Part shown: positions 14,770 to 63,110 of the stretch, piece by piece
Numbering within the stretch: the first letter of the stretch is position 1
How the letters are laid out: each line of letters opens with the position of its first letter
NCBI GenBank assembly: GCA_001600455.1
Contig: BCKC01000001.1
Location: 5,978,441-6,042,440 of the forward strand
Direction: 5' to 3'
Source: Endocalyx cinctus
Lineage: Eukaryota > Ascomycota > Sordariomycetes > Amphisphaeriales > Apiosporaceae
Length of the DNA stretch: 64,000 nucleotides
Notes under the pieces: model-generated
The model's input: only the letters and a program-made list of their open reading frames with translations
What the model was told of the DNA's origin: nothing
Database searches by the model: none
Made by a program: the position numbers and the translations under genes

Positions 14770-17134
14770 TCAAAATAAATGCCATGCTATGAGTCCAGCC
14801 ATCATAACCGTGCTCCCCCATTTCCATGGACATATCCAAGACCCGATACCCTCTTGTGGTACCACCGACGACGTGCCGTTATCGCCGCCGCTATTTGGTA
14901 TCCGGACCTCGTCCCTAAGCACGATCTTCTCCACGTTTCCGGTTAGGTTCTGCAAAGGAGCCACGAAAGCCATCTGACTCCAGCTGAACAAAGTATTTTT
15001 ACCCCCGAACACGAAGACCTCGAACCGTCCCACGAAAGTGCCGTTCACCCACACGCGGCTACCGCCGATCACGTCTCCCGTGATGACCACCGACGCCGGC
15101 GTAGAGACGGTCACGGGCTCGTGAGACGACGTCGTCGCGTTGGCCCATATGCGTCCCGGCTGGCCCGGGTCGTATCCGTCTCCCTCCGCCACCGATCGCA
15201 GCGGGTATTGCCAGCCGTCGGCGTCGAATGTCAACGATCCGGATTCGCTTAGCTCTAGGGTAGTGTCTTCTGAGGCTAGCGTAAATGGTCCCGTAACGGT
15301 GAGGGTTAACGTGTAGTTCATTCCCTTGCTACCGTACCCGAGCGAGATCGGTTCACTCGCTGACTGCGCGGCTGGTCGTGTCCAGTTAATCAACTCTCCT
15401 GCTGCGGATCCGTTTCGCCCTGATATGCGTCGGTCGAGGTTTTGCCCCGGAGCGAGGGCAGAAAGAAATTCTATCGAATCGTCTATTGTGTCTGCGTCCA
15501 CTGTTTGGAAAAGAACTATGAGTTAGTAACCTCTTCTCCCCAAGCAATGAATCTCCAGAGCGAAAAAACATGAACGGAAATAGCCTACCACTAAGTCCCC
15601 TAGCACCGCTCCAAGCCCTCGCAGCGACGAGCGGTATGCCGCGACGCATAGCGTAATAGGCCTCCAGCTGCGTCGTCGCGTCCGGGCCGTTATCGTTCCA
15701 AGCCGCCATGATGGCGCCCTTATTCAGGGGCGCCCCGGGCGGCAGTTGTTCGGTCACGTTGACCGGGTTGAAGAGGGCCGGCTGCCACTGCCAACCCTCT
15801 TTATCAGCGAAGTCGAGTAGGCGAGTCTCGTTGAAGAACTGGGGGTACGGCGCCGGCAGGATCGGCATGTGGTCGTTCTTCAGGCTCATGTACGCCCACC
15901 AGTCCTCCGTGTTGATCATACCGTACCCCTCGGACTGCAGCTCGAGGGGTTCCGACTGCCCGTACTGCCAGTGCTGGACCACGACGTCTTTCGAGATCGT
16001 CAGATTCTCGGACGGCTCCAGGGTGCCCCAGATGCGGATGGACTTGCCGGACGTCTCGTTGACGAACGTAGCCATCTCGTTCACGAAGCGGATGTAGTCG
16101 TCCGCTAACGTCGCGTCGTACTCGTCGGCGCCGATGTGGACTTCTTTCGTCTGGAACCACGGTAGGAACTCCTCCCAGATTTTCTTGATTGTCGGGATGC
16201 TGTCCGGGTGCGTGAGGTTGAGGAGGTCCTTCTTATCCAGCGCTAACTCGGGCTTCCACTTCGTGACGACCAGACAGTGGCCCGGAGCCTCTATCTCGGG
16301 CACGACGGTGATACCCCTTGCGGCGCAGTGAGACTGGAGGTCTTCGAAGTCCGCCCGGCTCAGCGTCTCGTTCGGGCGCTGGATTAGCCCCTGCAGGTCC
16401 TCGCTCTCGGGCCGCAGGCTGAACTGGGCGTAGACCTCGTTCCAAGTATCGTTCCGACCCCGGTTCAGCGGGTAGTTATCGCTTGTGTGATAGTGGAACT
16501 CGGACATCTTGAAGAAGGACGCGTAAGTGCACAGGTCCTTCAGGAAAGCCGGCGAGTACCACTTCCTTCCGGCGTCGAGCAGGAACCCCCTCGTCGCGTA
16601 CGCCGGCGCGTCCTCGATCCTCGCCGCCTCCAAGGAAGTCCAGTTCGCGAGCATCATCCGCTGCAGGAGCGTCCTGGTGCCCCACCAGACGCCGCGGGAA
16701 CCCGACCCGCTCACGACGGCCCGGCCGTTTCCGATTTCCAGGACGTACCCTTCCTCCGTCGGGGTCCCGTTCTCGTACGCCGGCGTCGACGACGGGTCGC
16801 CGTCGTCGTACGCGTCGAGGAAGATCCCCGACGCGTTCGCGGGGACGGACGCCACGCGGCGCAGATCCCATTTTTCTCCCGTCGCGGCCGCTAGGTCCCG
16901 CACGAACACGTCGGCGAACTCGAGCCCGCTCGGCGGGATGAGCGTTAAGCCCTCGGAATCGCGACGGGAGGCGATCGCGTCGGTGATGAATACGGTCCGG
17001 GGCAACTCGCGGAGAGAGAGGCGCGGCGGTGTCGCGGAGCCGTTTGTGGGCGCGGCGTTAGCGGGAGCTGGTGGGAGCGTCTGGAGAGCGGCAGCCCCCG
17101 CAATGAATAGATAAAGGTGAGGAGTATACATCAC
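14770..17134 (-). CDS. Secreted/membrane-anchored GH20 beta-N-acetylhexosaminidase
   Basis: Two exons (17134-15589 and 15500-14770; the 88-nt intron has a GTAGGC donor and an AACAG acceptor) give 758 aa. Residues 1 to about 28 form a signal peptide with an Ala-rich core. A GH20b-type N-terminal domain precedes the catalytic barrel. H-I-G-A-D-E-Y-D at residues 333-340 supplies the catalytic Asp337-Glu338 pair of retaining GH20 enzymes, which use substrate-assisted catalysis on terminal GlcNAc/GalNAc. Earlier barrel landmarks include G-F-L-L-D-A-G-R-K-W-Y-S, E-F-H-Y-H-T-S-D-N and V-V-P-E-I-E-A-P-G-H. Many N-x-S/T sequons fit secretion. The last 20 or so residues are hydrophobic (W-G-S-T-V-M-M-A-G-L-I-A-W-H-L-F), so the enzyme may be held at the membrane or by GPI. 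The gene is notably GC-rich relative to its flanks. Likely role: cell-wall or exogenous chitin/glycan turnover. Confidence 0.92.
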
Positions 17135-18359
17135 AAACTATGCTTGGGGTAATCATGAATCTTGGCCAACATGGAATTGACGAGGTTTTACTTGTTGCCA
17201 ATTCATTTACATAGAGAAAAAAAAATAAGAACGAGGAAGTTGAGTAGTTGTGACGTCCCCCTCGATAATTTATTTTGTGTAATTTTCTTGGCCCGTGTCA
17301 CCGTCTCTTTACTCCCGGATATCTACGCCAAGTATTTAACATTGACTTGAAAGAGTCGATGGTAAACCTTGATCATGGAGAAGATAGCTACGATATGCCA
17401 AGCCGAGAGGCACTAGTTAAATACGCATTTCATAAGCAACGTTACGCCGTGAATACGAAGAGTCAAAATGATTCTAATCCAACTTTTTTTGTTGACCGCT
17501 GACTCGGGGGGAGGCAGGGGATGATGCAGGTAGATAGGGCATATCCGGGGAACCCCGCCCGCAAGCAAATATCACCAATTATCTCAGATAAAGAATACCC
17601 TGATCGGCCATTACTCATATAAATTTGTTCTCATCTACTATAAATCAAACCGGGCTGAGCATTGCCAATATAGATGACAGTATAGTTACACATAACTATT
17701 AGAGCTGTGTTCCTAATCAAGCAAAAACACTTGGATATACAAATACGCCACCGTCGCAACAACACGCCAAATTTGGAGATCACCACCAGCTACGATATAC
17801 TGAACGATGCCAGTGGATACAGGACTTTTCTATGCATCGAATCAAATTAATCGTTGGCCATAGGTTCAAGCAGATCAAAGGATCGAAAGAATAACCATAA
17901 ACATCAGCAATTGTTTCAAATGTCGAGACACTAGATCCCAACCTCCCAATTTGTTATTCTCTACTACACCCATATTATACATTCAACCTCGGACATGTGA
18001 TTAAAACTTGGATCTAGCTTTCCTGTCTTGATGGGAGAATAACGATATAACGACGCCGCGCAGACTAGAGGCAAAAATCTATGCTCTTGAGTATCTGCCC
18101 TATGGCTATAATATCATGTGTTATAGTTGGTCAGAGAAGGTAATTATCGGTGAACAACCAATGGTATCGGCATTGGGTGAGACTAATGGTTGATACTGTA
18201 CGGAATATCCAGGCTATAATTACTTAATCAGCTAAGTCGAAAGGGAGACTTAGAATAGTTTCCGGGGACCATGACTAGTGGAATCCAAAAGCTATAAGAA
18301 TATTCCAAGCGCCAACTGCGCAATGGATGCGAGGTGATACTCAAACCTGGTTTTACCTC

Positions 18360-20117: not shown

Positions 20118-23031
20118 ATGGGTGACGAAGAACCAGACTACAGCTCCCTCCCTATAACGGATAGATGGGTTCATAAAGTACGTTATTCCCGAGCATACAT
20201 ATATAGATACGCTCTTTTATACCCCCTCCGTCCTTCCTATGGCTCCGGAATTATTTGTGACGCATTTGCGCTGACTGACACTATTTATAGGTATGGAAAG
20301 TTCGTAAGGGGGCCTACGAAGAGGCCGCTAAACAATTTGAGGTCACACCCGACGAACATGATCCTGCTTTTCGACCTTTTAACCAAGACCCCGGTCTTTG
20401 GAAGACCGCCGTGGCAGACTCGAACGTTGCCGCGCAAACGGATGGTATAGCTGCGTACTGCTCATTTCTAAAGTTTGGAGGAAGAGAAGGATGCACACGT
20501 TCAAGAGGACATGTAGTCGGTCCCATCTGCGAGAAAGGCCTCGTATCTACGAGGCCTGCAACGAAAGCCTCGTCGCTCGAGGCGCTGCTTCTCCTGATCG
20601 AAATCGATTCCGCCGCCCCCATTATCGAAGACATGATTCCCGCCTTGTCCGCGAAGCAGCCCAAGGTCATTGCCGCCGCTCTCGCAGCACTTACAAATAT
20701 ATATCACAATTTTGGCTGCAAGATTGTAGACCCAAAACCTGTCTTAAAAGTTCTGCCGAAAGCGTTTGGTCATGCGGACAAGAACGTACGAGCCGAAGCG
20801 ACAAATTTGGCCGTCGAGTTTTATCGGTGGCTTAGAGATGCCATGAAACCCATGTTCTGGGGTGATCTAAAACCTACTCAACAGACGGATCTAGAGGCCC
20901 AGTTCGAAAAGATTAAGGCAGAGCCTGCGCCGAAGCAAGAGCGGCTGCTAAGATCACAGCAAGAAGCTATGGCCCGCGCCCCGCCCCCCGGCGCTGACGG
21001 GGATTATGCAGATGAGGACGATGGCGTCGAAGAACCAGCAGAGGTTGACGCATTTGACTTGGCCGAGCCTCAGGATGTATTGTCCAAGGTACCCGGTAAT
21101 TTCCATGACAACCTTGCTTCGTCAAAGTGGAAGGACCGAAAGGAAGCTCTTGATGCGCTTTTCGCCGTGCTTAACGTTCCTAGGATCAAGGACGGTGACT
21201 TCGGAGAGATCAACCGCGGTCTTGCTAAATCTATGAAAGATGCCAATATTGCCGTCGTTACTACAGCAGCTCAGTGCGTTGAGGTCCTTGCCAAGGGTCT
21301 ACGAAAGGCCTACGGCAAGTACAGACAGACCGTAATGGCCCCGATAATGGAACGTCTGAAGGAGAAAAAAGTCACTGTTTCGGATGCCCTAGGTGCCGCT
21401 TTGGACCAAGTTTTTCTGGCTACGAGTTTGACCGACTGTCTCGAAGATATCCTGGCGTTTCTCGTCCATAAAAACCCGCAAGTTAAAGAGGGAACCATGA
21501 AGTTCCTGGTTCGCTGTCTCCGAACAACTCGTGATGTTCCTAGCAAGCAAGAGGTGACTAGTATCGTCGAAGCGGCTAAGAAATTACTCTCGGAATCCAG
21601 CGAAGGTCTCCGATCTGGAGGTGCCGAAGTTCTGGGAACGGTTATGAAAATCCTCGGTGAGCGCGCTATGAATCCCCACCTCGAGGGCTTGGACGACATT
21701 CGAAAAAACAAAATCAAGGAATTCTTCGATAAAGCAGAAGTCAAGGCCAAAGATAAGCCTAAGCCTAAGCCTAAGCCAGCGCCTGCACCTGCCGCTCGAG
21801 CCGGACCTGGACCCAAAAAGGTCGTGGGAGGTGGTCTCAAGAAGGGACCGGGTGCCGTCAAAAAAGCAGCTCCGGCTCCACCACCTGTTGCAGACCCGAC
21901 ACCGGCCGCTCCTCCACCGTCCAAGCCTGCCGGTAGCAAGCTGGGAATGCCGAGATCTGGGGGTTTATCTGGTCTAAAAGCGCCGCAGAGACGTATCGGT
22001 GGCCCCGGAGTTGCATCTCCACGAAGAGCTCCGGCAGCAGCGCCGCCACCGCCACCTCCCGAGGAAGAAGAAGAGGAAGAGCCCGTAATAGCCTCCCCCC
22101 CCCCTCGGCCACGTATCGGTCTTGGACGAGGAGGTTTAGCTGGTCGATCTCTTGCGAAACCGGCGGCATCGTCGGCGGCTGCGGCTGCGCCGATGCCAGG
22201 TTCTCCCACACCTTCCAGCGGGCTGGCGGCGATGGAGAGAGCTGAATTAGAAGAGCTGCGTGCTACCAACGAGAGACTCCTGAAACAGGTAGATGAGATG
22301 CGGCACGAACGAGGAAGACTTACATCTGAAATACAAGAATTGAAGAATCAAAACGCCAATTTGATCGAAGATCACACGCGAGATGTGTTGAGTATAAAAG
22401 CAAAAGAGACGCAACTTGTAAGAGCAAGGAGCGACGCTGAAACGGCAGAACAAACCAACGAGCGGTTACGACGAGAACTCGAACGTCTCAAACGTGCGTT
22501 AAGTCGAGCCGAAGGTCTTGCGGTGGCCGGGGGTGCTCCGGTCGGAAGTCCCGGTGTGACCAGCCCTACCGGGGAGGATTTGGGAATTTACCGCGACGGA
22601 TCCAACTACTCCAGTGCGCGATCGAATCGGGCAAGCTTCACGAGTACGTTCTCGGAGGAGAAAGAAAACGGGGATATCCCTCATAATTTCCCCCGAAGTA
22701 AACTTAGTCCCGAGATGAGATACGGCAGCGGCTCGAGCGGACGGGGAAGTCCTGCTCGGGGTTACAGAAGCACACCGATCGACGACGGGCACGTTTCAGC
22801 GCAAGGTCACACATCCAGCACAACAGGTTCCGGAGGTGCCAGTAACGGGGTAGAGAGTTGGAAGCGAGCAGCAGAGGTTACAAGTCAGCTCAAAGCAAGA
22901 ATTGAGCAAATGAAGGTAAGTTTTTTTTTTTTTTTTTTTTAACTATTTACTTAAGTATGGTTATTACCGTTATAGGATTCAGCTAATATTTCTCTATTTT
23001 ATAGGCTAAGCAAGGGTTTAACCGACCATGA
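20118..23031 (+). CDS. XMAP215/Dis1-family TOG microtubule polymerase (Stu2/Alp14 homologue)
   Basis: Three exons give 903 aa: 20118-20177, 20291-22915 and a 27-nt terminal exon 23005-23031. The start M-G-D-E-E-P-D-Y-S-S-L-P-I-T-D-R-W-V-H-K matches the family's usual N-terminus, and the first splice gives the hallmark W-V-H-K-V-W-K-V-R-K. TOG1 covers about residues 1-230. TOG2 starts near residue 285, with its S-S-K-W-K-D-R-K-E-A-L motif near 295-305. A basic/proline linker (repeated KP from about residue 500) likely binds the microtubule lattice. A coiled coil runs from about 668 to 755 (M-E-R-A-E-L-E-E-L). The Ser/Gly-rich tail ends in a short basic segment supplied by the last exons. Family role: tubulin-dimer capture and plus-end growth at spindle and kinetochore. 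The second intron begins GTAAG followed directly by about 20 T. Confidence 0.93.
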
Positions 23032-24072: not shown

Positions 24073-24879
24073 ATGCATTCTCTCAGAAGATCAGTTCTCC
24101 GAGCGTCCACGCTTCGGCCGACGAGTGCGCTCCGAGCTACCGCTGCTTCAACACCATCGCCACTCGCAGCCAACATCGCCAGAACTCCCTCGTCGAAGCG
24201 TCTATATCACGAAAAAGATACGTTATTCATATTTATCAAATCGTCTTTGTCTCGATATTAGAATAACCGATGCTAACTTGCTAGCTTTTACTGATCGACC
24301 ACTACAGCCGACCTCGTAACCCTGGCTCGCTCGACAAGATGGACCCTTCGGTCGGTACGGGACTCGTTGGTGCCCCGGCGTGCGGTGACGTGATGAAGCT
24401 TCAGATTCAGGTCGACAAGGCGACGGGAACCATCACCGACGCCAAGTTCAAGACTTTCGGCTGTGGTTCCGCGATCGCTAGTTCGAGTTACCTGACGACT
24501 CTCGTCAAGGGCATGCGATGTAAGTATACGATTACATCTACCTACTCATCTATCCCGAGAGTAGAAGAGAGAGAGAAAAAAACACTAACCAAGAATGATA
24601 GTGGAGGATGCCGCTAAGATTCGCAATGTCGATATATCAAATGAGCTCTGCCTCCCTCCCGTAAAACGTAAGTGTCCTTTATCTCCGCCTTTTTTTTTTT
24701 TGGTCAACTTTAAATCTAACAAACTGTCTTTTATCATAGTGCACTGCTCTGCGCTTGCCGAGGACGCCATCAAAGCCGCTATCGCCGATTACCACGGCAA
24801 GAACCCCGCAGCCAAGATAACCGATAACCTCGCTGGAAACCTCGCCGGAACTGCTAAGACCTTCGAGAAGGAGGCATAA
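24073..24879 (+). CDS. ISU1: Mitochondrial iron-sulfur cluster scaffold ISU1/IscU
   Basis: Four exons give 192 aa: 24073-24217, 24292-24519, 24602-24667 and 24740-24879. All internal junctions are phase 1. Residues 1-43 are Arg/Ser/Ala-rich without acidic residues, a mitochondrial presequence. The mature protein has the three cluster-ligand cysteines (Cys79 in G-A-P-A-C-G-D, Cys106 in F-G-C-G-S, Cys149 in L-H-C-S) and the Hsp70-binding L-P-P-V-K at 142-146. IscU receives sulfur from Nfs1 and iron to build [2Fe-2S] clusters in the matrix. Intron 1 (24218-24291) has no GT-AG solution that preserves the invariant Y-H-E-K-V-I-D-H-Y-S block. Using ATACGT at the donor and TTTTAC at the acceptor joins G+TG to give Val49 and the exact family sequence. 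An in-frame GT-AG alternative (24222-24307) would replace V-I-D-H-Y-S with D-T. Confidence 0.93.
24218..24291 (+). other. Probable AT-AC intron of ISU1
   Basis: 74 nt, starting ATACGT and ending CTTTTAC, with a consensus branch point GCTAAC at 24272-24277 about 15 nt before the 3' end. The donor equals a GTACGT U2-type site with its first G changed to A. A CTAG just after the branch point is not used in this model because it breaks the frame. The support is protein conservation across the junction; no transcript was seen. Confidence 0.75.
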
Positions 24880-28872: not shown

Positions 28873-30598
28873 ATGAATGCTCAAAAAAATTTAATAAATT
28901 CTTGTCATTTCCGACATATTTCACGAGTTTATAGTTATTCTTACAAAATCAGATCTTCTGCGTTATTTTGGAATTCACCCCGATCATTTTCCACCACAAA
29001 TCTCAAAATGACTTCTGAGTTAGAAGCCAGCGAATCTGCATCAACCGCCATCAATATGTATAAGCCACGTTATATCGATGTAAGTTTCTCGCACTTTTCT
29101 CCACACATCTCTCCTTACCGATGTGGCAACTTATCCCGTCAATCATTCCCTTATGGAGAGGATTTTGACGGGGGATGATACCCATGATTCCTCCTCGTAT
29201 TTTCTTCAGCGTAGATCACATGAGTCATTCATTCTATTTCTCTACCGTCTTGTCTTTTTATAATTGCGTATTAACCCGCGTCGTACCCTTTGCAGATCGG
29301 TATCAACCTAGCAGACCCGGTTTTCCGTGGTCGATATCGCAGAACTCAACGACATCCCGATGATCTTGGCGCTGTCATATCCAGGGCCAAGGAGGTAGGA
29401 TGCGAGAAATTGATTGTGACTGGCTCTGATCTCGTCAGTTCCAAAGAGGCTCTCGAAATAGCTAAAGAGCATCGTAAGTATATTGATTTCTCTTCCCAAA
29501 GGTTAATATATAGGTACCAGTTTAGGTTGTTGGGAGCCGGGAATTAAAAATATCGCCCGAAGCTAATTCCCCTTGTCACAAAAAGCTGGCATTGTTTATA
29601 CCACGGCTGGCATTCATCCTTGCTCGAGCTCCGTCTTCAGCTCATCTCACGCGCATCATGACGCTGATGGGCATACAACGCCCTGTGACCCGGACCCGTC
29701 CGCGCCTGTATCGGAGGACCCAGAACCGGATGAGGCGAAGACGGCGGAGATCATATCGGAGCTACGGAGGGTGATCGAAGAAGCCAGGAGCGCGGCGGGG
29801 TCGGGTCCCGCCGCGCTGGTCGCCTTTGGCGAGTTTGGTCTCGACTACGATAGGCTGAATTACTGCTCCAAGAAAGTCCAGCTTCACTCGTTCGCGGCGC
29901 AGCTCGACCTAGTTCTTAGCCTCGAGCCGCAATTACCGCTGTTCCTGCACTCGCGGGCGGCGCACGCCGACTTCGTTTCCTTGCTGAAAGCCAAGTTCGG
30001 CGACAAGCTCGAGAAGCTGCAAAAGGGCGGCGTCGTCCACAGCTTCACGGGAACGGTCGAGGAGATGCGCGAGCTGATGGACCTGGGACTGCACATCGGC
30101 ACGAACGGCTGCAGCTTCAAGACGGCCGATAACTGCGCCATGGTCAAGGAGATCCACCTCGACCGTCTCATGCTCGAGACGGACGGGCCCTGGTGCGAGA
30201 TCCGTTCCACCCACGAGGGCTGGAAATACTTGGTCGAGCATTACAAGCAGTTCATGACCAAGGACGCACCCGCCGGCGCCGAGTCTTCTACCACGACGAC
30301 CGCGACGGCAACACCTTCGCAGTCGGGCACCGCGACCCCTTCCGAGTCGTCCGCGACAACAAATTCGGGTCGAAAAAAGCGACCCCCGCCGAAAACGAAA
30401 GACTCGGAAGTACCGGATAGGTTCAAGTCGGTTAAGAAGGAGAAGTGGACCGAGGGTGTCATGGTCAAGAGCCGCAACGAACCGTGCATGATAGAACGCG
30501 TGGGGCTCGTGGTCGCCGGCGTCAAAGCCGTCCCTCTCGAGGAGGTGTGCGAAGCAGCATGGAAGAATACGGTCAAGGTTTTTGGGTTAGAGGACTAG
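28873..30598 (+). CDS. TatD-family metal-dependent DNase (TATDN1-like)
   Basis: Three exons (28873-29079, 29296-29473, 29586-30598) give 465 aa from the first ATG, or 420 aa from the in-frame ATG at 29008. Splicing gives R-Y-I-D-I-G-I-N-L-A-D-P-V-F-R-G, then K-E-H-P-G-I-V-Y-T-T-A-G-I-H-P-C. Metal-site motifs follow: G-E-F-G-L-D-Y, F-L-H-S-R, V-V-H-S-F-T-G-T and L-E-T-D-G-P-W-C. TatD enzymes are 3'-5' exonucleases linked to apoptotic DNA degradation and repair. A low-complexity Thr/Ser/Pro insert of roughly 45 residues separates the core from the final R-N-E-P-C-M-I helix block. The N-terminal extension (residues 1-45) has Arg/Lys/Ser and no acidic residues, so a mitochondrial form from the upstream ATG is plausible beside a cytosolic form from 29008. 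Confidence 0.9.
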
Positions 30599-30915: not shown

Positions 30916-32652
30916 TTATGACAAGCCGGACCCCTTAAAACCTCTTATGCGCCCGCGCCTCACCGCGCCGACGGTAACGCCCTCTTCGCCCGTCATCCAG
31001 CCAGGCATCTTCTCGCCATCTACGACGCCCGCTTCAACGAGCTGTCTTATACCGGCGAAGACGTGCGACCCGTGGAAGGCAAAGCGGAGATTGGGTATCC
31101 AAGCTCTCGAGCCTCCATTTCCGTCTCCTTCTTGTTCTTCCTCCATCTCCCCATCTTCTTCTTGCGAGAGGAGACTTATATCAACTATACTCTTCCGACC
31201 TTTACTGGACCTTCTCCGTTTCCGCGCTTCGTTGTCCGCTTCTTGGTCGTTATCGTCGTCGTCATTCCCAGGAGGTGGTAACGGCGGTTGGTGCGAAGAG
31301 TGAGGGAAAGGATCCTCGATCACGACGTCGAACCTCTCTACGCCCTTCCCGTCGTCGACCTGGGCCGAGTTTCCGAACCGCGCCTTCGCGAGGACCTTAG
31401 CGCGCTTCCGTTCCCTCTCGACCGCCTTCGCCTCCTGATCTACGGGGACGAACGGCTCCCGTCGCGACGACGAATAGGACCTCTTGCGCGAAGCGGCCGA
31501 CGACCTTCCGCCTTTCGCGTCGTCTTGCTCCACCTCCGAAAGCGGCGGCGTCGGCAGGAGCGCCGCGTTGAGCGGGTTATCCTGCCTCAGGACCTCGCCT
31601 TTGGTCTCGGCGTAGATCCCCCACCCGCCCTGCGCGGCGTTCGTGCGCGCGGCCCCGCCCTTGACGGAGAGCATGGCCTCGAGGTTCTTCGTCTGTAGGT
31701 TCGTCGCCCGGAGCCCGTACCGCTCGCGCGGCCGCGACAGCGCTTTCGGTATCCCCTCGACGACGAGCCCGCGCAGGGACTTGGTCTCGCCCGTGGTGGT
31801 CGTGCCGGACCCTTGCGACTTCGAGACGAATATGTGCGGGGACGCGTCCGGAAAGGCGACGTAGATGGTGCGGGAGGCGTCGAAGCTCGTCGTCGACGTC
31901 GTCGCTATCCTCGACGAAGACGACGACGACGAAGCGGAAACGCCGGCGCGGTTGCTCAGCGCCAGGTCGGTGTTGTACGGAGAATCGAGCACGAAGATTC
32001 TCAATATCAAAAGGGGTAAGCCCGAGGGCCGGTCGAAGTTGTAGTGCGCCTTGACGTCCGGCAGGACCTCGCCCTGGAGGTTCCGCAGAAACGTCGACGG
32101 GTGGAAGCGCGGCACGTGCAGCGTCTCCCGGTCGGGCCGGTCCGCCGCGCGCTCGTCCTCGTCCACGTCGTCCTCGTGCCTCGGCGCCTTCAGCCGCTGG
32201 ATCCGGTAGGCCGTCCACTTCATCGTCCCCGGGTGCTCGTACAGGTGCTGCAGGTCCGCCATCGCGAGCTGGTACAGGCTCACGCCCCGCCGCCAGTCGC
32301 CCTCGAGGATCCGGTCCACCACCTCCCGGCGGCTGCCCTTGCGCGTCTGCATGTCCCGGTACAGCTCGCGCAGGTCTTCGAGCGAGCGCGCGGGCGGGTA
32401 GAAGTCGCCTTCGTATTCGTCGTCGTCGTCGTCGTCATCCTCCTCCTCTTCATCGTCGTCTTCGCGCACGCGTCTTCGTCGCAACAGGGGCGGGCATAGA
32501 GACTGGTTCCGTTCGTCCAGCCAATCGAGAACGAGCGATAGGAGGGATCCGCGTGACAGTCGGTTCAGGAATTTGACGGCCGACGCGTTGGTTGGGTCGA
32601 CTCGGAGGGATGACGGGAGGCGGGCTGTCGTGGGTAGCGAGAGTCGTGCCAT
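30916..32652 (-). CDS. CHL4: Kinetochore protein CHL4/Mis15 (CENP-N homologue)
   Basis: Intronless gene of 578 aa. The N-terminal segment (T-A-R-L-P-S-S-L-R-V, then F-L-N-R-L-S-R-G-S-L-L-S-L-V-L-D-W-L), the R-R-E-V-V-D-R-I-L-E-G-D-W-R-R-G block and Y-Q-L-A-M-A-D-L-Q-H-L-Y match the CHL4/CENP-N fold. A Lys/Trp-containing stretch (M-K-W-T-A-Y-R-I-Q-R-L) follows. The family belongs to the inner-kinetochore CCAN, pairs with Iml3/CENP-L and contacts the CENP-A nucleosome. Odd features are a run of Asp/Glu near residues 64-80 and a Ser-rich loop near 240-260, both low complexity. The C-terminal F-H-G-S-H-V-F-A-G-I-R-Q-L-V-E block is the dimerisation region in relatives. Very high GC compared with the flanking spacer. 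Confidence 0.85.
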   Translation of the reverse strand: MARLSLPTTARLPSSLRVDPTNASAVKFLNRLSRGSLLSLVLDWLDERNQSLCPPLLRRRRVREDDDEEEEDDDDDDDEYEGDFYPPARSLEDLRELYRDMQTRKGSRREVVDRILEGDWRRGVSLYQLAMADLQHLYEHPGTMKWTAYRIQRLKAPRHEDDVDEDERAADRPDRETLHVPRFHPSTFLRNLQGEVLPDVKAHYNFDRPSGLPLLILRIFVLDSPYNTDLALSNRAGVSASSSSSSSRIATTSTTSFDASRTIYVAFPDASPHIFVSKSQGSGTTTTGETKSLRGLVVEGIPKALSRPRERYGLRATNLQTKNLEAMLSVKGGAARTNAAQGGWGIYAETKGEVLRQDNPLNAALLPTPPLSEVEQDDAKGGRSSAASRKRSYSSSRREPFVPVDQEAKAVERERKRAKVLAKARFGNSAQVDDGKGVERFDVVIEDPFPHSSHQPPLPPPGNDDDDNDQEADNEARKRRRSSKGRKSIVDISLLSQEEDGEMEEEQEGDGNGGSRAWIPNLRFAFHGSHVFAGIRQLVEAGVVDGEKMPGWMTGEEGVTVGAVRRGRIRGFKGSGLS

Positions 32653-34482
32653 GGGTAAACAAATTACTTTTTTTCTTGTCGATCAATCGAGTTCAAATCG
32701 CTGCATGAGGGGATTGGCAAAAGCCACCCTCGATTTTTTTGCTGGGTAGGATAGTTGGGGTGTTCTTGTAGCCGAAGTACTCGTAAAAGCTTCTTTCAAT
32801 CATTGTTTTCGTATGATGTCCAAATATTCAACGCGTTTAACGCGCCTGCCTCGATAATGATGGATATACCTTTACCGGATTGATTAATGCACTTACTAGG
32901 GATATATGTATCTAAGCATTATGAATGAATCGGTTTATGTATTTCCCACTTAAAGTGGTATTGACTTATTCACGCAAAGTAACTACCGCAAAACACTACG
33001 TTTATATTTTCCATTACCTTTTCAGACTCATAGAATGTCTCGCCAATACCTAGAAAGCTCGTCGACCAGGAAAATAGCCTGTCTGGGGTTAGTTCATGGA
33101 TTATCAAATCCGCGCCAACGACAATAATACCTGGAAGAGATATCAAAAAGCTAGACTACGTGCTGAGAATAAACCCGCAATTATTACGGGCCAGGACTCT
33201 TTTCCGTCTGGGACACGAGTGACGTTATTTGTACTCCTCGGAGAAATAAACTGAGCCATGCGACATTCATCTTAACAGACGACGCGGAGTTCACGGAGTT
33301 CCTGGACGTGTATCACAGATAGTAGATTACTTACCTATGTTCAACAATGTCATACTATAGGGGGTGGTACAGCAGTTATCGAGGTCACGAGGCAATCTCT
33401 GCGTATCAAAGCTTGGAAATATGTCTGAAATATGTGGGGTTTTATTATTTTTTTTCCCATACGCATCAAAACTTTACTTATCGACTGAAATGCGTGCCTC
33501 GAAACAAGCAGCGGTACATGGGAAAGGCAAATTGAATCACTTTTACCCTCCCTCCCCAAAGGTAATGTATCATCTCCGAGGTCTTGGTGCAAATGGACTT
33601 CTAGATTCCTAAAGTGCTAAATCAGCACAACGCATACTACAACGGATATACTATGTAAAGTTTGAGTTTTCGCAATGCCTTGCGAGCTTCCTCTTACGGT
33701 TCTAGCTTCCTACTTGACTTCCTCGCGGCTCACTTCCAATAAATAAGCACACTGGGTGACCGGAATTTCCTATTTGAGTAGTGCTGTATAAATTATCTAG
33801 TATATACATATACGTCGAACCTTTCTCCGTGGGTAGAGCCGAGGAAAGCGCATCTGAAAGTATTGCTATGTATAACATCTGCCGTATGGAATAAATCGGC
33901 GAGCTTTTTCAACTTTGCCAGTAAGGATTCTTAGTGTGAAAATAAGGGTTAGCTAGGTAGCAACCCCTTACACCGTATACATATTACAAACGTCCCCCTT
34001 AAACGATTTAAAGGATGTCATGGTATGGAATAGTGAAAATACTCGTCCTCCGTGGCTTAAGTTACGCGGACAGAGAGAGCTATTGGGGACTATGCATCAC
34101 TAGTCAAAATGTTGCCATTTGTCGAAGTATTATAACGCCGGATAAATACTCTCAGAAACATTTGTAAGCAAAGTAAAAGGAATTTACCGCTACTTCGTAA
34201 AAAAGTCGGGTTAGTGGATATGTCAACAATGCTCAGTAATCACTCGTGAGTGTTTCATAGATTAAAATGAAGCCTGGACACGATTATCACGAACCTGGCG
34301 TTAAGCGCTGATGGACTTCCTCTTCCGATGTGGGACATGCAATATATGTATGTATGTATGTATGTAGCTACATATCATCCGGGTAAGAAAGATGATAGTT
34401 TAAATCGGGATTTGGTTCATTCGTATGAGTAGAGTACATGAGAAACCGTGGCAGGTTTCCTGCATCATGGCAATGCCCACAT

Positions 34483-58893: not shown

Positions 58894-61104
58894 CTAAATA
58901 TCCATACTGGTCGGATCTTGACTCGTGAAGATCTTATGCAGACGCTTGCTAATAGCCTGACCGACGACGCGATCGGTGAAGGCGCCGTCGCGGTTCGCGC
59001 TCTTCCGACAATCCTCGACGGCGAAGAGTCCTTCCCTCTCTAAGCCGACGGCGAGCCGCGCCACGGACGGGTACTTGGCCGCGACGCCGTACGCGACGGG
59101 GGCGGTGACGCGGGTGATCTCCTGGAGCATGCGAACGTAGGTATCCTTAGCGTCCTCGCCCGTGCGCACCTGACCGGCGTCCATGCAGAAACCGGCCTCG
59201 GCCGCGGCCTCGTTCCGGATCCGGCGGTACGGGATCGTGCTGATGTTCTGCGTGAAGACCGACACCCAGCTCGCCGACTCTATCGCCGCCGCCGTGTGGT
59301 GGACCAGCACGCCGTGGCGCACCTGCAGCGACAGCAGCGCGTCCTCGACCGCCTCCTCGTCCACGTACACCTGGGGCTGCCGCGCGCTCTGGTTCCGTCG
59401 TCGCGGCTGGCTCGAGGACGGGGCCGCTTGGCTGCTGGGGGGAGGATGATCCGACGGTCCCTGGTTCCGGACGGCCGATGCGAATTGCCGGTTGAGGAAA
59501 TTCTTGTTCTTGCGCGCCCACGCGACGTATCCCTCGATAAGGTATATTATCTTTGTGCGAGGAAACGACGTTTTCATTTTGAGCACGTGAGCTTCCAGAT
59601 CGTGACCTTCTTCTCCTAGTACCAGCTTGACAAACTCGTCCGCCTTTACGAGAACCAACACATGATCTTCATCTTCTATTTTAGAAGGAATCGGCACCCA
59701 ATGGCCCATCTGTTCATCATATCTCGCAACGATTTTCCGACGCCATTTGACCACATTTTCCACGGGCGCCGTGTATGTCTCGTGTTCAACGTCTAGATCT
59801 TTAAGTAGCGCTTCAACCTGTTCCTTAATACCCGTATCCAAGCTGTCTGGAATTTTCACAATCATCTCCGGGACGGAAACTTTCTTATTAGTTCGTATTT
59901 TGTTGACTTCAGCGAGTGCTTTTTCCCTTTCCTTTTCTTTTTGGCGTTGATCTCTCATTATATCTCTCTCGGTTTTCTTTCGCTTTCTTTCAGCTTCCTG
60001 GGCTTCGGCCCTCTGCTTCTTCGCTTTTTCCTTTTCTTCCGCCGTCCTGGCTGTTGCGACCGGTTTTTTAATGACGGCTGCACTTGTTTTTTTGCCTTTC
60101 GACTTCGACGTACTCCTCTGTGGGGAGGAGCTAAAGCTGAAAGAGCGCCTTACGGGTCTAGGTTTCAAGAATTCGACGTCTTTCAGGTCGGGAAGACCTT
60201 CTGAATCCGAGTCGGAGGCTAGAGAATTGGGTGCGTAGCCAGACCGGGCCCCGTTTCTGATCGCCATAGGCGGGCTCGATGTTAAATCGTGGCTAGTGGT
60301 ATTTAACTCCGGCATAGAACTTGATATGGGATCCCACGCGACAGGAGCTCTCGTGGTCTTCGATTTCGTCCTTTGTGGTGAAGCACTCGGGGGATCGCTC
60401 GATAAATCTATACAAATGATATTCGTGGGCTGCTTGTCACGCGAGGATCGATTAGCACTCGCAGACGATTCGCCCGGCATATCTTCCGGCCAATTCCAAC
60501 CCGCGCTCAACGCAGTATTGCTATTTTTTGGTCTCCTGGGCGGACTTTGGAAAGGATCATCTGGGCTCGATCTGATTCTAGCTGGTGGTAGATTAACCGC
60601 CTGCCTTTTCACAGGACTAGCAAAGGGATCATCGTCTTCGTCGAGGCCTCTCTTCTGAGGTCTAGTAGCGTCATCTTCTCTAGGCGAGCTGGTATACTCT
60701 ATAGGGTCTGCAGCTGAATCACATTTTCGTAGTGGAGCTGAATGAAGATGACGTCCTTCAGTGTTCAATACGCCCGACTTGGAACGATTTAGAGAGCTGA
60801 ACCTATCATTATCTCTTCTTCGAGTGGCGTCTGGTGACTGGTGATGTTTCTTGGGAATATCTAGGTCAAGGATATCCGGAAGATCAGAGGAGTCGTGACT
60901 ATTTAGATTAGGGCGACGGGTGTTCCCCATCTCCTTTGATTTCGGATACCTTGTTATTGTTGTGATGACATCAGGGTCGTCATAGTCGAGAGCTCTAGAA
61001 GAAAACTTTTTATTTGGTAATGCGGGTAACTTGCAAGATTTTGGCTCCGCTGGGGAGAGTGCAGTTGGACTTGACGACAGCAAGTCGATTACTTCAGTCG
61101 ACAT
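58894..61104 (-). CDS. EME1: Structure-specific endonuclease subunit EME1/Mms4
   Basis: Intronless gene of 736 aa. The N-terminal half is disordered with many S-P/T-P sites and a Lys/Glu/Arg coiled-coil segment (about 360-405). The C-terminal half has the inactive ERCC4-type nuclease fold, beginning V-P-E-M-I-V-K-I-P-D-S-L, then I-I-Y-L-I-E-G-Y and the S-L-Q-V-R-H-G-V-L-V-H-H-T block. It ends with helix-hairpin-helix-like sequence (I-T-R-V-T-A-P-V-A-Y-G-V-A). EME1 partners Mus81 to cut 3' flaps, stalled forks and nicked Holliday junctions. Two SUMO-interaction-like patches are visible: E-V-I-D-L-L-S-S-S at residues 4-12, and I-I-C-I-D-L-S-S-D near the middle of the N-terminal half. It lies downstream of the THI4 leader, on the same strand. 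Confidence 0.88.
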   Translation of the reverse strand: MSTEVIDLLSSSPTALSPAEPKSCKLPALPNKKFSSRALDYDDPDVITTITRYPKSKEMGNTRRPNLNSHDSSDLPDILDLDIPKKHHQSPDATRRRDNDRFSSLNRSKSGVLNTEGRHLHSAPLRKCDSAADPIEYTSSPREDDATRPQKRGLDEDDDPFASPVKRQAVNLPPARIRSSPDDPFQSPPRRPKNSNTALSAGWNWPEDMPGESSASANRSSRDKQPTNIICIDLSSDPPSASPQRTKSKTTRAPVAWDPISSSMPELNTTSHDLTSSPPMAIRNGARSGYAPNSLASDSDSEGLPDLKDVEFLKPRPVRRSFSFSSSPQRSTSKSKGKKTSAAVIKKPVATARTAEEKEKAKKQRAEAQEAERKRKKTERDIMRDQRQKEKEREKALAEVNKIRTNKKVSVPEMIVKIPDSLDTGIKEQVEALLKDLDVEHETYTAPVENVVKWRRKIVARYDEQMGHWVPIPSKIEDEDHVLVLVKADEFVKLVLGEEGHDLEAHVLKMKTSFPRTKIIYLIEGYVAWARKNKNFLNRQFASAVRNQGPSDHPPPSSQAAPSSSQPRRRNQSARQPQVYVDEEAVEDALLSLQVRHGVLVHHTAAAIESASWVSVFTQNISTIPYRRIRNEAAAEAGFCMDAGQVRTGEDAKDTYVRMLQEITRVTAPVAYGVAAKYPSVARLAVGLEREGLFAVEDCRKSANRDGAFTDRVVGQAISKRLHKIFTSQDPTSMDI

Positions 61105-63110
61105 TTCAAATAGTTGATTTATTCAAGTAGGGTGAGTTGTTTGAGAAAGTTAGCGTGAGTATGAAGCGAATCAGCTCCTACAAGCTCACAAGCCACAGTA
61201 AAAGATAGCGATGGTATTCAGAATCAGCCATTCATCTTGATATAGTCATTATAGCCCGAGATGCATTTGATTATAAGTTTATTTGGAACATTGTTTTGCA
61301 AGGTAGATCATATTAATCAATTTGACTAAGCAACCGCGTTCTAAATGTTCAGTCTAAGCGCGATCTAATCGCGTCACGCTTTATCGAATTTGGGCATTTA
61401 GTCTGTTAACTTAATATTTCAATTTATGGGCTCTTTTACTAGAATATATATCATAATAAAAGATTTATATAATTATACGCTTCAAGAAGCATGCAGACAT
61501 GCCATTGGAATTCCATATAAACGTAGTCGCGTAGACAGAGCTTAGTTATTAGGTAGAATTATATTTTAAAGATCTCATCCTAAAGAGTATTAATTATTCA
61601 TTTTCCCGCTCTCTGTTTAGGACGGGAACCTCTTCTTATATAAAATAGTACTTTTATTTAGGCGACTTGGAGAGTAGTTATAAGCACGTAACTAACATAA
61701 ATTGATGTGATCAGTACCCCTGATAGCGTTTTAAAGTCCCTTTGAAGGTATTAGCCGCCGATAAAGTAAAAACGAGGAATGATATACTGTAATTTGCCTG
61801 CATTAAAACTGTAGTCAAGTCAGCAGTTTTTCTCGGAATAAATCTCAGAAAAAAAAGGAGAGAGGAAGAGCTAATGACCAGTTCAGCCCGACAACGCAGC
61901 ATCATCTCTCATTCTTCCATATGTGGTCTTTAGGAGATTGACGGGGTTACTGGCGATTAAATAAATAAAAAACTCGATCTATACGAACACTGGCTCTCTA
62001 ATAATGTGCGAAAACGAGTCGGCCAGTGGACGAGGAGATCACCCTATGGGTGATTGTCAAGATTCCTGTTGCAATATCAGGGTTTATTCCCTATGTAGTC
62101 AGTGGCCAGCCACTAAAGAGAGTCACTGGGCGGTTAGCGAGCACTGTGTTCAACAAGATATTTTGTCGAAAGAGATGAATCAGATACTATGATTTCTAGA
62201 GGCATCTATTTTTGGATAATGATTTCTCCTTGCATCATAGCCAGTGTACTCTCATCTATTTTCTCCCACTCCTACCATGCTTGAACCATATCGTCAAAAT
62301 CTTGCTCTGCAGCTAACTCTGCTTGAAGGGCCATTTCTCTCCATTTATTCCCCTGGATTTCTTTGACCATCGCTGTGACTATTACGATATCCACGGCTAC
62401 AATCAGCAAAGCTCTTTTCACACTTGATGCTAGCTTGGAGAAAAAAAAAAAAAAAAAAAACTTTACTTACCCCATATATTCTTATCATCAACTGTTGTAT
62501 ACAACCAGGTGCCGTAGCTTCTCGTGCTCTGATCCCGCACGGCACCAGATTTAACGTCTAGCAGTCTCATGTGTGAGTTCTTCGCCACGGCAGACTGGAG
62601 CTTTCTCAATATGTAGGCGGCGCTATTCTCGGCTGTGCGCTGCTCCGTAGTTGCTAGTCAGAGTTCGATGCCCCCAGGGTTTGGGCTAAATCATGTACCC
62701 AAGTACGCAACAGAATCCGGGGAAAGTAGGACGGTGTCTGCCTAGCAGGGAAGAGATGAAATGAGGTGAATAGCTGGAGTATAGCAGAAGTAGGGAGATT
62801 CCAGAAAAAGTCCAGAACGTCGACACGGTAACTTATTTATGTACCATCTTAGAATGCCTATGGTTATTCAGCTTAAGAATTCACACCCTGACAAGAGTTT
62901 CTACGCGCACGCCGAAGTATGACACGGTATCGTAGTTGTGCAGTGGGTTGCTATGTGCTTAATGAGTAGCTCTGTCAGATTCCTAGTCCTAAACCTGTGC
63001 TCGCCTTTCCAATTGCGTCTCTTAGTGAATCTATGTGCATCAAGCTAGAGGCAGCTGAAACAGGGATGCCGCTCAAATTACCATCCTTCTCGCCTGTTCG
63101 ACTTATATCC
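61105..63110. other. AT-rich intergenic region
   Basis: About 2 kb with no supported gene. It includes a poly-A tract near 62441-62460 and the EME1 promoter next to 61105. Composition changes to GC-rich after about 63.13 kb. Confidence 0.5.

What the first reader, a model, noticed from the sequence alone, without database searches (positions are those of the whole stretch)
24218..24291. Probable AT-AC intron in the ISU1 gene
IscU proteins share an almost invariant Y-x-E-K-V-I-D-H-Y-x-x-P-R-N block. The DNA encodes all of it, but only if a 74-nt intron starting ATACGT and ending TTTTAC is removed; G+TG then forms the expected Val. A CTAAC branch point lies 15 nt before the end. No GT-AG pair keeps the block; the one in-frame GT-AG option (24222-24307, weak GTTATT donor) deletes V-I-D-H-Y-S. 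AT-AC introns are very rare in ascomycetes, and the ATACGT donor with a U2-like branch suggests U2-type splicing rather than U12. Automatic annotation would probably choose the deleting GT-AG model.
Basis: partly seen in the sequence, partly recalled or inferred. Interest (0 to 1): 0.75.

Follow-up and report, generated by a model that had tools for sequence, protein, structure and literature searches.

The report
Conserved AT-AC intron in fungal ISU1
A fungal gene for building iron-sulfur clusters is interrupted by an intron with the rare ends AT and AC, and traces of the same odd ends in distantly related fungi suggest that it is old and often mis-annotated.

Summary
Window 24218-24291 is a 74-nt intron, ATACGT...CTAAC...TTTTAC, in the only ISU1/IscU gene detected in this genome. 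Of 3069 in-frame, stop-free junctions examined, one restores YHEKVIDHYS, and it is this one. Introns 2 and 3 of the gene are GTAAGT...CTAAC...TAG. No U11, U12, U4atac or U6atac reached its Rfam cut-off, so the major spliceosome most likely removes it.

Relatives support it. Deposited gene models that misread this junction reveal its bases: 36 of 267 fetched proteins continue YH[ED]K with Asp (intron starts A, then T or C), 0 with Gly, which GT would give. Fifteen models that enter exon 2 early read Leu where AG would give Val. They span Sordariomycetes, Dothideomycetes, Eurotiomycetes, Lecanoromycetes, Xylonomycetes and Xylobotryomycetes. Control: misread intron 3 shows G at +1 in 33 of 35. 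In 31 ORFs from other lineages the junction is unbroken.

Most likely one old U2-type AT-AC intron, locked because both ends must change together. No DNA or RNA reads of relatives were available.

The parts
24073..24217 (+). ISU1 exon 1: start codon, presequence, ends ...RLYHEK + first base G of the Val codon
24218..24291 (+). Intron 1, AT-AC, 74 nt, phase 1
   Evidence: the 1 of 3069 in-frame stop-free junctions that gives EKVIDHYS
24218..24223 (+). 5' splice site ATACGT: A at +1, then the U2-type pattern R-N-G-T at +3 to +6
   Evidence: A at +1 inferred in 36 misread models of relatives
24273..24277 (+). Branch-site motif CTAAC, adenosine 24276
   Evidence: introns 2 and 3 also hold CTAAC
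24290..24291 (+). 3' splice site AC (TTTTAC|TG)
   Evidence: C or T at -1 inferred in 15 misread models
24292..24519 (+). ISU1 exon 2, begins TG ATC GAC CAC TAC
24520..24601 (+). Intron 2, GTAAGT...CTAAC...TAG, canonical
24602..24667 (+). ISU1 exon 3
24668..24739 (+). Intron 3, GTAAGT...CTAAC...TAG, canonical
24740..24879 (+). ISU1 exon 4 with stop codon TAA 24877-24879
   Evidence: whole protein passes TIGR01999, 202.2 bits against 192.4
24222..24307 (+). Rival GT-AG intron GTTATT...CTACAG, which would delete VIDHYS and give YHEKDTRPRN (not favoured)
   Evidence: its protein falls below the IscU cut-off, 185.5 against 192.4 bits

Best explanation
24218-24291 is a genuine nuclear intron with AT-AC ends in the gene for the mitochondrial iron-sulfur scaffold Isu1 (IscU). 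The major spliceosome removes it: U1 and then U6 recognise the donor, whose +3 to +6 bases are ordinary, U2 recognises CTAAC, and in the second step the A at +1 is matched by the C at -1 in place of the usual G-G contact. The intron is an old feature shared with ISU1 of many filamentous ascomycetes. It persists because changing one end alone would block splicing, while loss of the whole intron is tolerated. Shown here: the junction and the protein it restores, the U2-like signals, no minor-spliceosome RNA above cut-off, and A at +1 and C or T at -1 read from misannotated relatives. Inferred: splicing in this species, the A-C contact, common descent and the lock-in.
For: Only 1 of 3069 open junctions restores the block. 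One NifU_N gene was found in the genome. IscU equivalog cut-off passed only by the AT-AC protein; Pfam NifU_N 174.1 against 155.5 bits. Same CTAAC and similar branch distance as introns 2 and 3: 15, 13 and 20 nt. U2 (2 loci) and U6 (1 locus) over Rfam cut-off; U11 and U4atac no match up to E 10, U12 and U6atac only below cut-off. Relatives: 36 of 267 proteins read Asp after YH[ED]K, 0 read Gly; 15 of 15 read-ins to exon 2 give Leu; +3+4 is AA 19, AT 10, GA 7, that is, variable where U2 donors vary. Control at canonical intron 3: 33 of 35 give Arg or Cys, G at +1. Near-identical pairs with and without the misreading, e.g. 204 of 205 and 195 of 196 aligned residues identical.
Against: No RNA reads of this species and no DNA of relatives were available; the relatives' bases are inferred from protein models. 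A GT-AG version of this intron would be annotated correctly and so would not be seen by this test. The inference fixes +1 as A, +2 only as T or C, -1 only as C or T, and does not fix -2. (15 of the 36) used a query built to find such models; the other 21 came from searches not aimed at them. Phyllosticta P0180 (YHEKDDQ), if read straight through, would have C or T at +5 instead of G. The three U1 candidates are below their Rfam cut-off, and the snRNA searches scored only the best first-look candidates, so absence is not proof.
Confidence: 0.92

Rival explanations
1. The cell splices GT-AG 24222-24307 and makes a shorter IscU, YHEKDTRPRN, without VIDHYS.
For: It is in frame and both ends are canonical. 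Twelve of 267 public proteins follow the same pattern.
Against: It deletes a block that 224 of the 239 fetched proteins holding the neighbouring [ILV][DE]HY..PRN motif keep with Val. The product falls below the IscU cut-off (185.5 against 192.4). Close relatives of such models have the full block: P0012 against P0004 166 of 176 identical, P0008 against P0002 156 of 172. No second ISU gene was found.
Confidence: 0.03
2. The intron is of the minor, U12-dependent type.
For: AT-AC ends are typical of that class in other organisms.
Against: Donor matches U12 ATATCCTT at 4 of 8; the best U12-like branch site in the searched part matches 6 of 9 and is not the CTAAC. No minor snRNA above cut-off. Minor introns were not found in Ascomycota (PMC10639083 passages; PMC2846911 passages). 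+4 and +5 vary in relatives as in U2 donors.
Confidence: 0.01
3. In addition to being spliced, the AT-AC intron is removed slowly and its retention regulates ISU1, for example with iron supply.
For: Retention gives an early stop. Protein cluster P0125 (13 member sequences, 5 contigs, longest 1154 nt) starts just after the junction although introns 2 and 3 are absent from it, as an intron-1-retained message would.
Against: P0125 may reflect a start-codon choice or a cut contig. No expression data. The junction is unbroken in 31 ORFs from other lineages, so the intron is dispensable.
Confidence: 0.1
4. A sequencing or assembly error, or a decayed gene copy, makes a normal GT-AG intron look like AT-AC.
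For: Not checked against reads.
Against: Two separate bases would have to be wrong, one at each end, in just the pair known to work together; the same +1 A and -1 C/T appear in unrelated assemblies; the reading frame is intact and it is the only copy found.
Confidence: 0.01

Closest known systems
U2-dependent AT-AC introns of animals (human SCN4A intron 21 and sodium-channel genes; PMC2831892, passages)
   Same: AT-AC ends with G at +5 and major-spliceosome signals; the same lock-in argument has been made for them.
   Different: Those are animal introns. This one is in a filamentous ascomycete, in an iron-sulfur scaffold gene, and recurs in several fungal classes.
AT-AC splicing in budding yeast (SUT635 protointron; mutant introns; PMC6726248, passages)
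   Same: Shows that a major spliceosome without a minor one can use AT-AC; reported as the most efficient pair after GT-AG.
   Different: In yeast it is a non-conserved protointron or an engineered intron; the paper states that no standard yeast intron normally uses AT-AC.
AT-AC junctions in fungal RNA-seq (Trichoderma longibrachiatum PMC4324775, Fusarium graminearum PMC3577648; passages)
   Same: AT-AC junctions in Hypocreales supported by reads.
   Different: The genes are not named in the passages I saw and the supplements could not be opened, so ISU1 may or may not be among them.
U12-type AT-AC introns
   Same: Terminal dinucleotides.
   Different: Donor, branch site and snRNAs do not fit.

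Membership tests
U2-type AT-AC intron | AT and AC terminal dinucleotides | tested here: met
   1 of 3069 junctions restores the protein, with these ends
U2-type AT-AC intron | U2-like donor with G at +5 | tested here: met
   ATACGT; 6 of 6 against RTRNGT, +1 allowed as A or G
U2-type AT-AC intron | Fungal U2-type branch site at normal distance | tested here: met
   CTAAC, 15 nt; introns 2 and 3 have CTAAC at 13 and 20 nt
U2-type AT-AC intron | Spliced in vivo at these ends | not testable with these tools
   No RNA reads; short-contig proteins of relatives with the full block (P0004, P0142, P0177, P0218) fit it
U2-type AT-AC intron | Splicing depends on U1, U2 and U6 | not testable with these tools
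   U2 and U6 genes over cut-off, U1 candidates below
U12-type intron | Donor RTATCCTT | tested here: not met
   4 of 8
U12-type intron | Branch site TTCCTTRAY | tested here: not met
   best 6 of 9, not at the CTAAC
U12-type intron | U11, U12, U4atac and U6atac genes in the genome | tested here: not met
   none over cut-off; best U12 20.1 of 53 bits, U6atac 19.1 of 33; U11 and U4atac no match up to E 10; the controls run were prokaryotes only
IscU/Isu1 scaffold | IscU equivalog score and YHxKVxDHYxxPRN block | tested here: met
   TIGR01999 202.2 bits against 192.4; block restored by the AT-AC junction

The most novel reading that the evidence does not exclude
One AT-AC intron in ISU1 was present in the common ancestor of leotiomyceta and has stayed AT-AC ever since under the major spliceosome alone. 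It has been lost several times but not converted to GT-AG, because its two ends are locked to each other. A bolder form, which I hold at about 0.15, is that it is the fossil of a U12-type intron whose +5 became G when ascomycetes lost the minor spliceosome.
Probability: 0.6. Interest if true: 0.7.

Novelty: new member of a known kind. Interest (0 to 1): 0.55.

Why it matters
It offers a natural, many-species test of the rule that the first and last intron nucleotides must match: relatives should show AT-AC or no intron, and not AT-AG or GT-AC. It also exposes a repeated annotation error. Among the 267 proteins fetched, 12 lack the VIDHYS-type block in the predicted way and others carry intron-derived insertions or lost N-termini, beside the N-terminal Tyr that is essential in human ISCU2 (PMC8617193, abstract and passages). 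Gene callers that allow AT-AC at this codon would mend these models.

Tried and rejected
Other junctions: in the range no GT-AG, GC-AG or other AT-AC junction keeps the block. U12 reading: rejected on donor, branch site and snRNAs. DNA of relatives: one scan each of genome contigs and viral contigs kept 80 loci each, best identities 73% and 70%; the genome contigs titles I saw name bacteria; I recognised no fungal ISU1 and read none of these loci further. Tree: 262 ISU proteins, 142 columns, FastTree; 132 of 240 inner branches open; nearest rows to the window by path are P0002, P0115 and P0008, highest identity 89% over 129 columns to P0008. The label 'misread model' needs 24 changes (shuffled mean 34.4), but it marks annotation errors, not evolution, so I do not use it. 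Set aside before the counts: P0001, P0123, P0124, P0126, P0158 (double-domain or YS-type proteins).

Literature: ten full-text searches showed no report of this intron; 'at-ac' with 'splice' and 'isu1' gave 0 papers. Subscription papers, preprints and supplements were not searchable, and the gene list of the Fusarium graminearum AT-AC junctions was not visible, so an earlier report cannot be excluded. The passages shown of PMC11719821 do not concern this intron.

Full report
What is in the sequence. The gene runs from ATG 24073 to the TAA at 24877-24879 in four exons and encodes a 192-residue IscU/Isu1-type protein. The best PDB match is 5t0v, 'Iron sulfur cluster assembly protein 1, mitochondrial', E 2.4e-60 (that this is the yeast protein is recalled). 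The whole-genome search found one NifU_N match in 44.76 Mb. Intron 1 is 24218-24291: AAAAAG|ATACGT ... GCTAACTTGCTAGCTTTTAC|TGATC. Of 3069 in-frame, stop-free junctions with any dinucleotides, one gives EKVIDHYS, and its ends are AT-AC. Introns 2 and 3 are GTAAGT...CTAAC...TAG.

Which protein is real. The AT-AC protein scores 174.1 bits against Pfam NifU_N and 202.2 against the NCBIfam IscU equivalog (cut-off 192.4). The GT-AG protein scores 155.5 and 185.5, the latter below the cut-off. Besides 24222-24307, four other GT donors are in frame with the acceptor at 24307; none keeps the block.

Which spliceosome. The donor fits RTRNGT at 6 of 6 positions (+1 allowed as A or G) and the U12 donor ATATCCTT at 4 of 8. 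The branch adenosine lies 15 nt from the end, against 13 and 20 nt in introns 2 and 3. U2 (two loci, 164.1 and 150 bits) and U6 (64.7 bits) are over their Rfam cut-offs. Three U1 candidates score 47.4, 42.1 and 37 bits against a cut-off of 69.5; all three carry ATACTTACC or its complement at one end, the usual U1 5' end by recall. U11 and U4atac gave no match up to E 10; U12 gave one match (20.1 of 53 bits) and U6atac eleven (best 19.1 of 33), below cut-off, as also happened in the prokaryote controls. Surveys found no convincing minor introns in Ascomycota (PMC10639083 passages; PMC2846911 passages). AT-AC works in yeast without a minor spliceosome (PMC6726248, abstract and passages).

Rarity. 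Annotated fungal AT-AC introns are 0.019% (PMC7072748 passages) and 0.03% in SnowyOwl models (PMC4084796 passages); in Trichoderma longibrachiatum RNA-seq they are 69 of 14305 junctions, 0.5% (PMC4324775 passages). AT-AC is also among the non-canonical junctions of Fusarium graminearum (PMC3577648 passages).

Evidence from relatives: the 5' end. Three protein searches scored 7995, 7996 and 7998 candidates and listed 120 each; together 267 different proteins. A gene model that misses this intron translates part of it. Because the intron splits a codon after G, the first misread residue reports bases +1 and +2: GT or GC would give Gly; AT or AC gives Asp. Of 267 proteins, 36 read YH[ED]K-Asp and 0 read YHxK-Gly. 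Twenty-one of the 36 are among the 168 proteins, which were not aimed at them; 15 are among the 99 added, whose query I built to find them. The second residue gives +3+4: AA in 19, AT in 10, GA in 7; the window has AC. So the donor varies where U2 donors vary and is constant at +1. One exception to a fully U2-like donor: Phyllosticta P0180 (YHEKDDQ) would have C or T at +5 if read straight through; a model splice at +5 would also explain it.

Evidence from relatives: the 3' end. Of 267 proteins, 239 hold the motif [ILV][DE]HY, one or two residues, PRN. The residue before it is Val in 224 and Leu in 15. The 15 enter exon 2 from inside the intron. AG|TN would read GTN, Val; Leu means C or T at -1. 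The residue before Leu is Ala (8), Ser (5), Pro (1) or Leu (1), which allows A at -2 but does not prove it.

Control. Intron 3, canonical in the window, is misread too. Of 262 proteins (five set aside), 38 fail the pattern LPPVK[LI]HC; two are natural Met variants and one lacks LPPVK. Of the 35 left, 22 read Arg and 11 Cys after LPPVK, that is, G at +1; one reads Pro and one His, both in gene models with further changes there. The residue test thus reports G at +1 where GT is expected. At the three junctions the patterns fail in 43, 3 and 38 of 262.

Paired comparisons. I aligned ten pairs of misread and full models. Phyllosticta paracitricarpa P0180 and P. citricarpa P0207 are identical at 204 of 205 aligned residues; Neocucurbitaria P0235 and P0218 (1295-nt contig) at 195 of 196; Bipolaris P0186 and P0177 (942 nt) at 187 of 195; Venturia P0130 and P0142 (930 nt) at 180 of 193; Metarhizium P0012 and P0004 (1166 nt) at 166 of 176. 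The second member of each of these five has KV[IL]DHY. Metarhizium acridum P0022 reads into intron 3 (LPPVKRTY), so that group has intron 3; P0004 has LPPVKLHC, which fits a spliced, transcript-derived contig. That the short contigs are transcripts is inferred.

How far it reaches. Models with A at +1 come from Purpureocillium, Ophiocordyceps, Hirsutella, Metarhizium, Pochonia and Claviceps (Hypocreales); Venturia, Bipolaris, Cucurbitaria, Neocucurbitaria, Lophiostoma, Botryosphaeria, Phyllosticta, Aureobasidium and Dothideomycetes sp. NU459; Arthroderma and [Emmonsia]; Cirrosporium; Xylona; and Xylographa. I looked up nine of these names: they fall in Sordariomycetes, Dothideomycetes, Eurotiomycetes, Xylobotryomycetes, Xylonomycetes and Lecanoromycetes, all leotiomyceta; the placing of the others is recalled. 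Against universality: 31 ORFs that run into intron 3 pass K|V without a break, so, if they are unspliced DNA, they lack intron 1. Their nearest proteins in a hand-picked set of 27 named ones are Hyaloscypha, Stipitochalara, Botrytis, Xylariales, Daldinia, Microdochium, Cercospora, Phaeomoniella and others, at 73-100% identity. The intron is patchy: A at +1 wherever this test could read it, absent elsewhere. Common descent with several losses is the simplest account; the ISU tree is too short to test it.

Mechanism. AT-AC is reported as the most efficient pair after GT-AG in a yeast intron (PMC6726248), and an AT-AC U2-type intron may be trapped because both ends must change together (PMC2831892 passages). 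That predicts loss but no single-end change. The misread models agree, within the limit that a GT-AG version would be annotated correctly and not be seen. In the window an AG at 24283-24284 lies 8 nt past the branch adenosine and would shift the frame; its avoidance fits the need for C at the end, or simple closeness to the branch.

A lead on age. Human ISCU1 has LSTQ where ISCU2 has Y35HKK (PMC8617193 passages). If this marks the end of an alternative first exon, the human gene too breaks just before the Val codon. I did not test that.

Verdict. The finding is right, and larger than stated: a U2-type AT-AC intron in the only ISU1 gene detected, recurring in several classes of filamentous ascomycetes and misread in many deposited models. 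The kind is known. This conserved instance was not seen in the ten literature searches made, which could not reach supplements or subscription papers.

Noticed in passing
L011 1470-1550 (G000 contig C1, about 2248907-2248987): The U6 snRNA gene seems to carry an mRNA-type intron directly before its ACAGAGA box: GTAAGT at 1479 ... CTAAC ... CAG at 1541 (63 nt), with GTTCGATTC, like a polymerase III B box (recalled), inside it. Read by eye only.
   Followed up: partly
G000:C2:249638-249791, C8:2372129-2372260, C6:2402755-2402915: Three diverged U1 candidates, all below the Rfam cut-off, with the U1-like ATACTTACC end.
   Followed up: no
window 20291-22942 (+): Open frame of a Stu2/XMAP215-type protein (TOG domains, Stu2 C-terminal segment) directly upstream of ISU1.
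   Followed up: no
window 30916-32682 (-): Open frame of a CENP-N/Chl4-type kinetochore protein, 385.7 bits to PF05238.
   Followed up: no
window 15386-17137 (-), 29567-30598 (+), 58894-61122 (-): Open frames with GH20 hexosaminidase, TatD DNase and ERCC4 domains.
   Followed up: no
protein P0125 (no locus held): Cluster of 13 short-contig sequences whose frame starts just after the intron-1 junction although introns 2 and 3 are absent; possibly intron-1-retained messages.
   Followed up: no
protein P0001 (Lamprigera yunnana, no locus held): A 312-residue protein with two IscU-like domains, the first diverged, the second intact.
   Followed up: no
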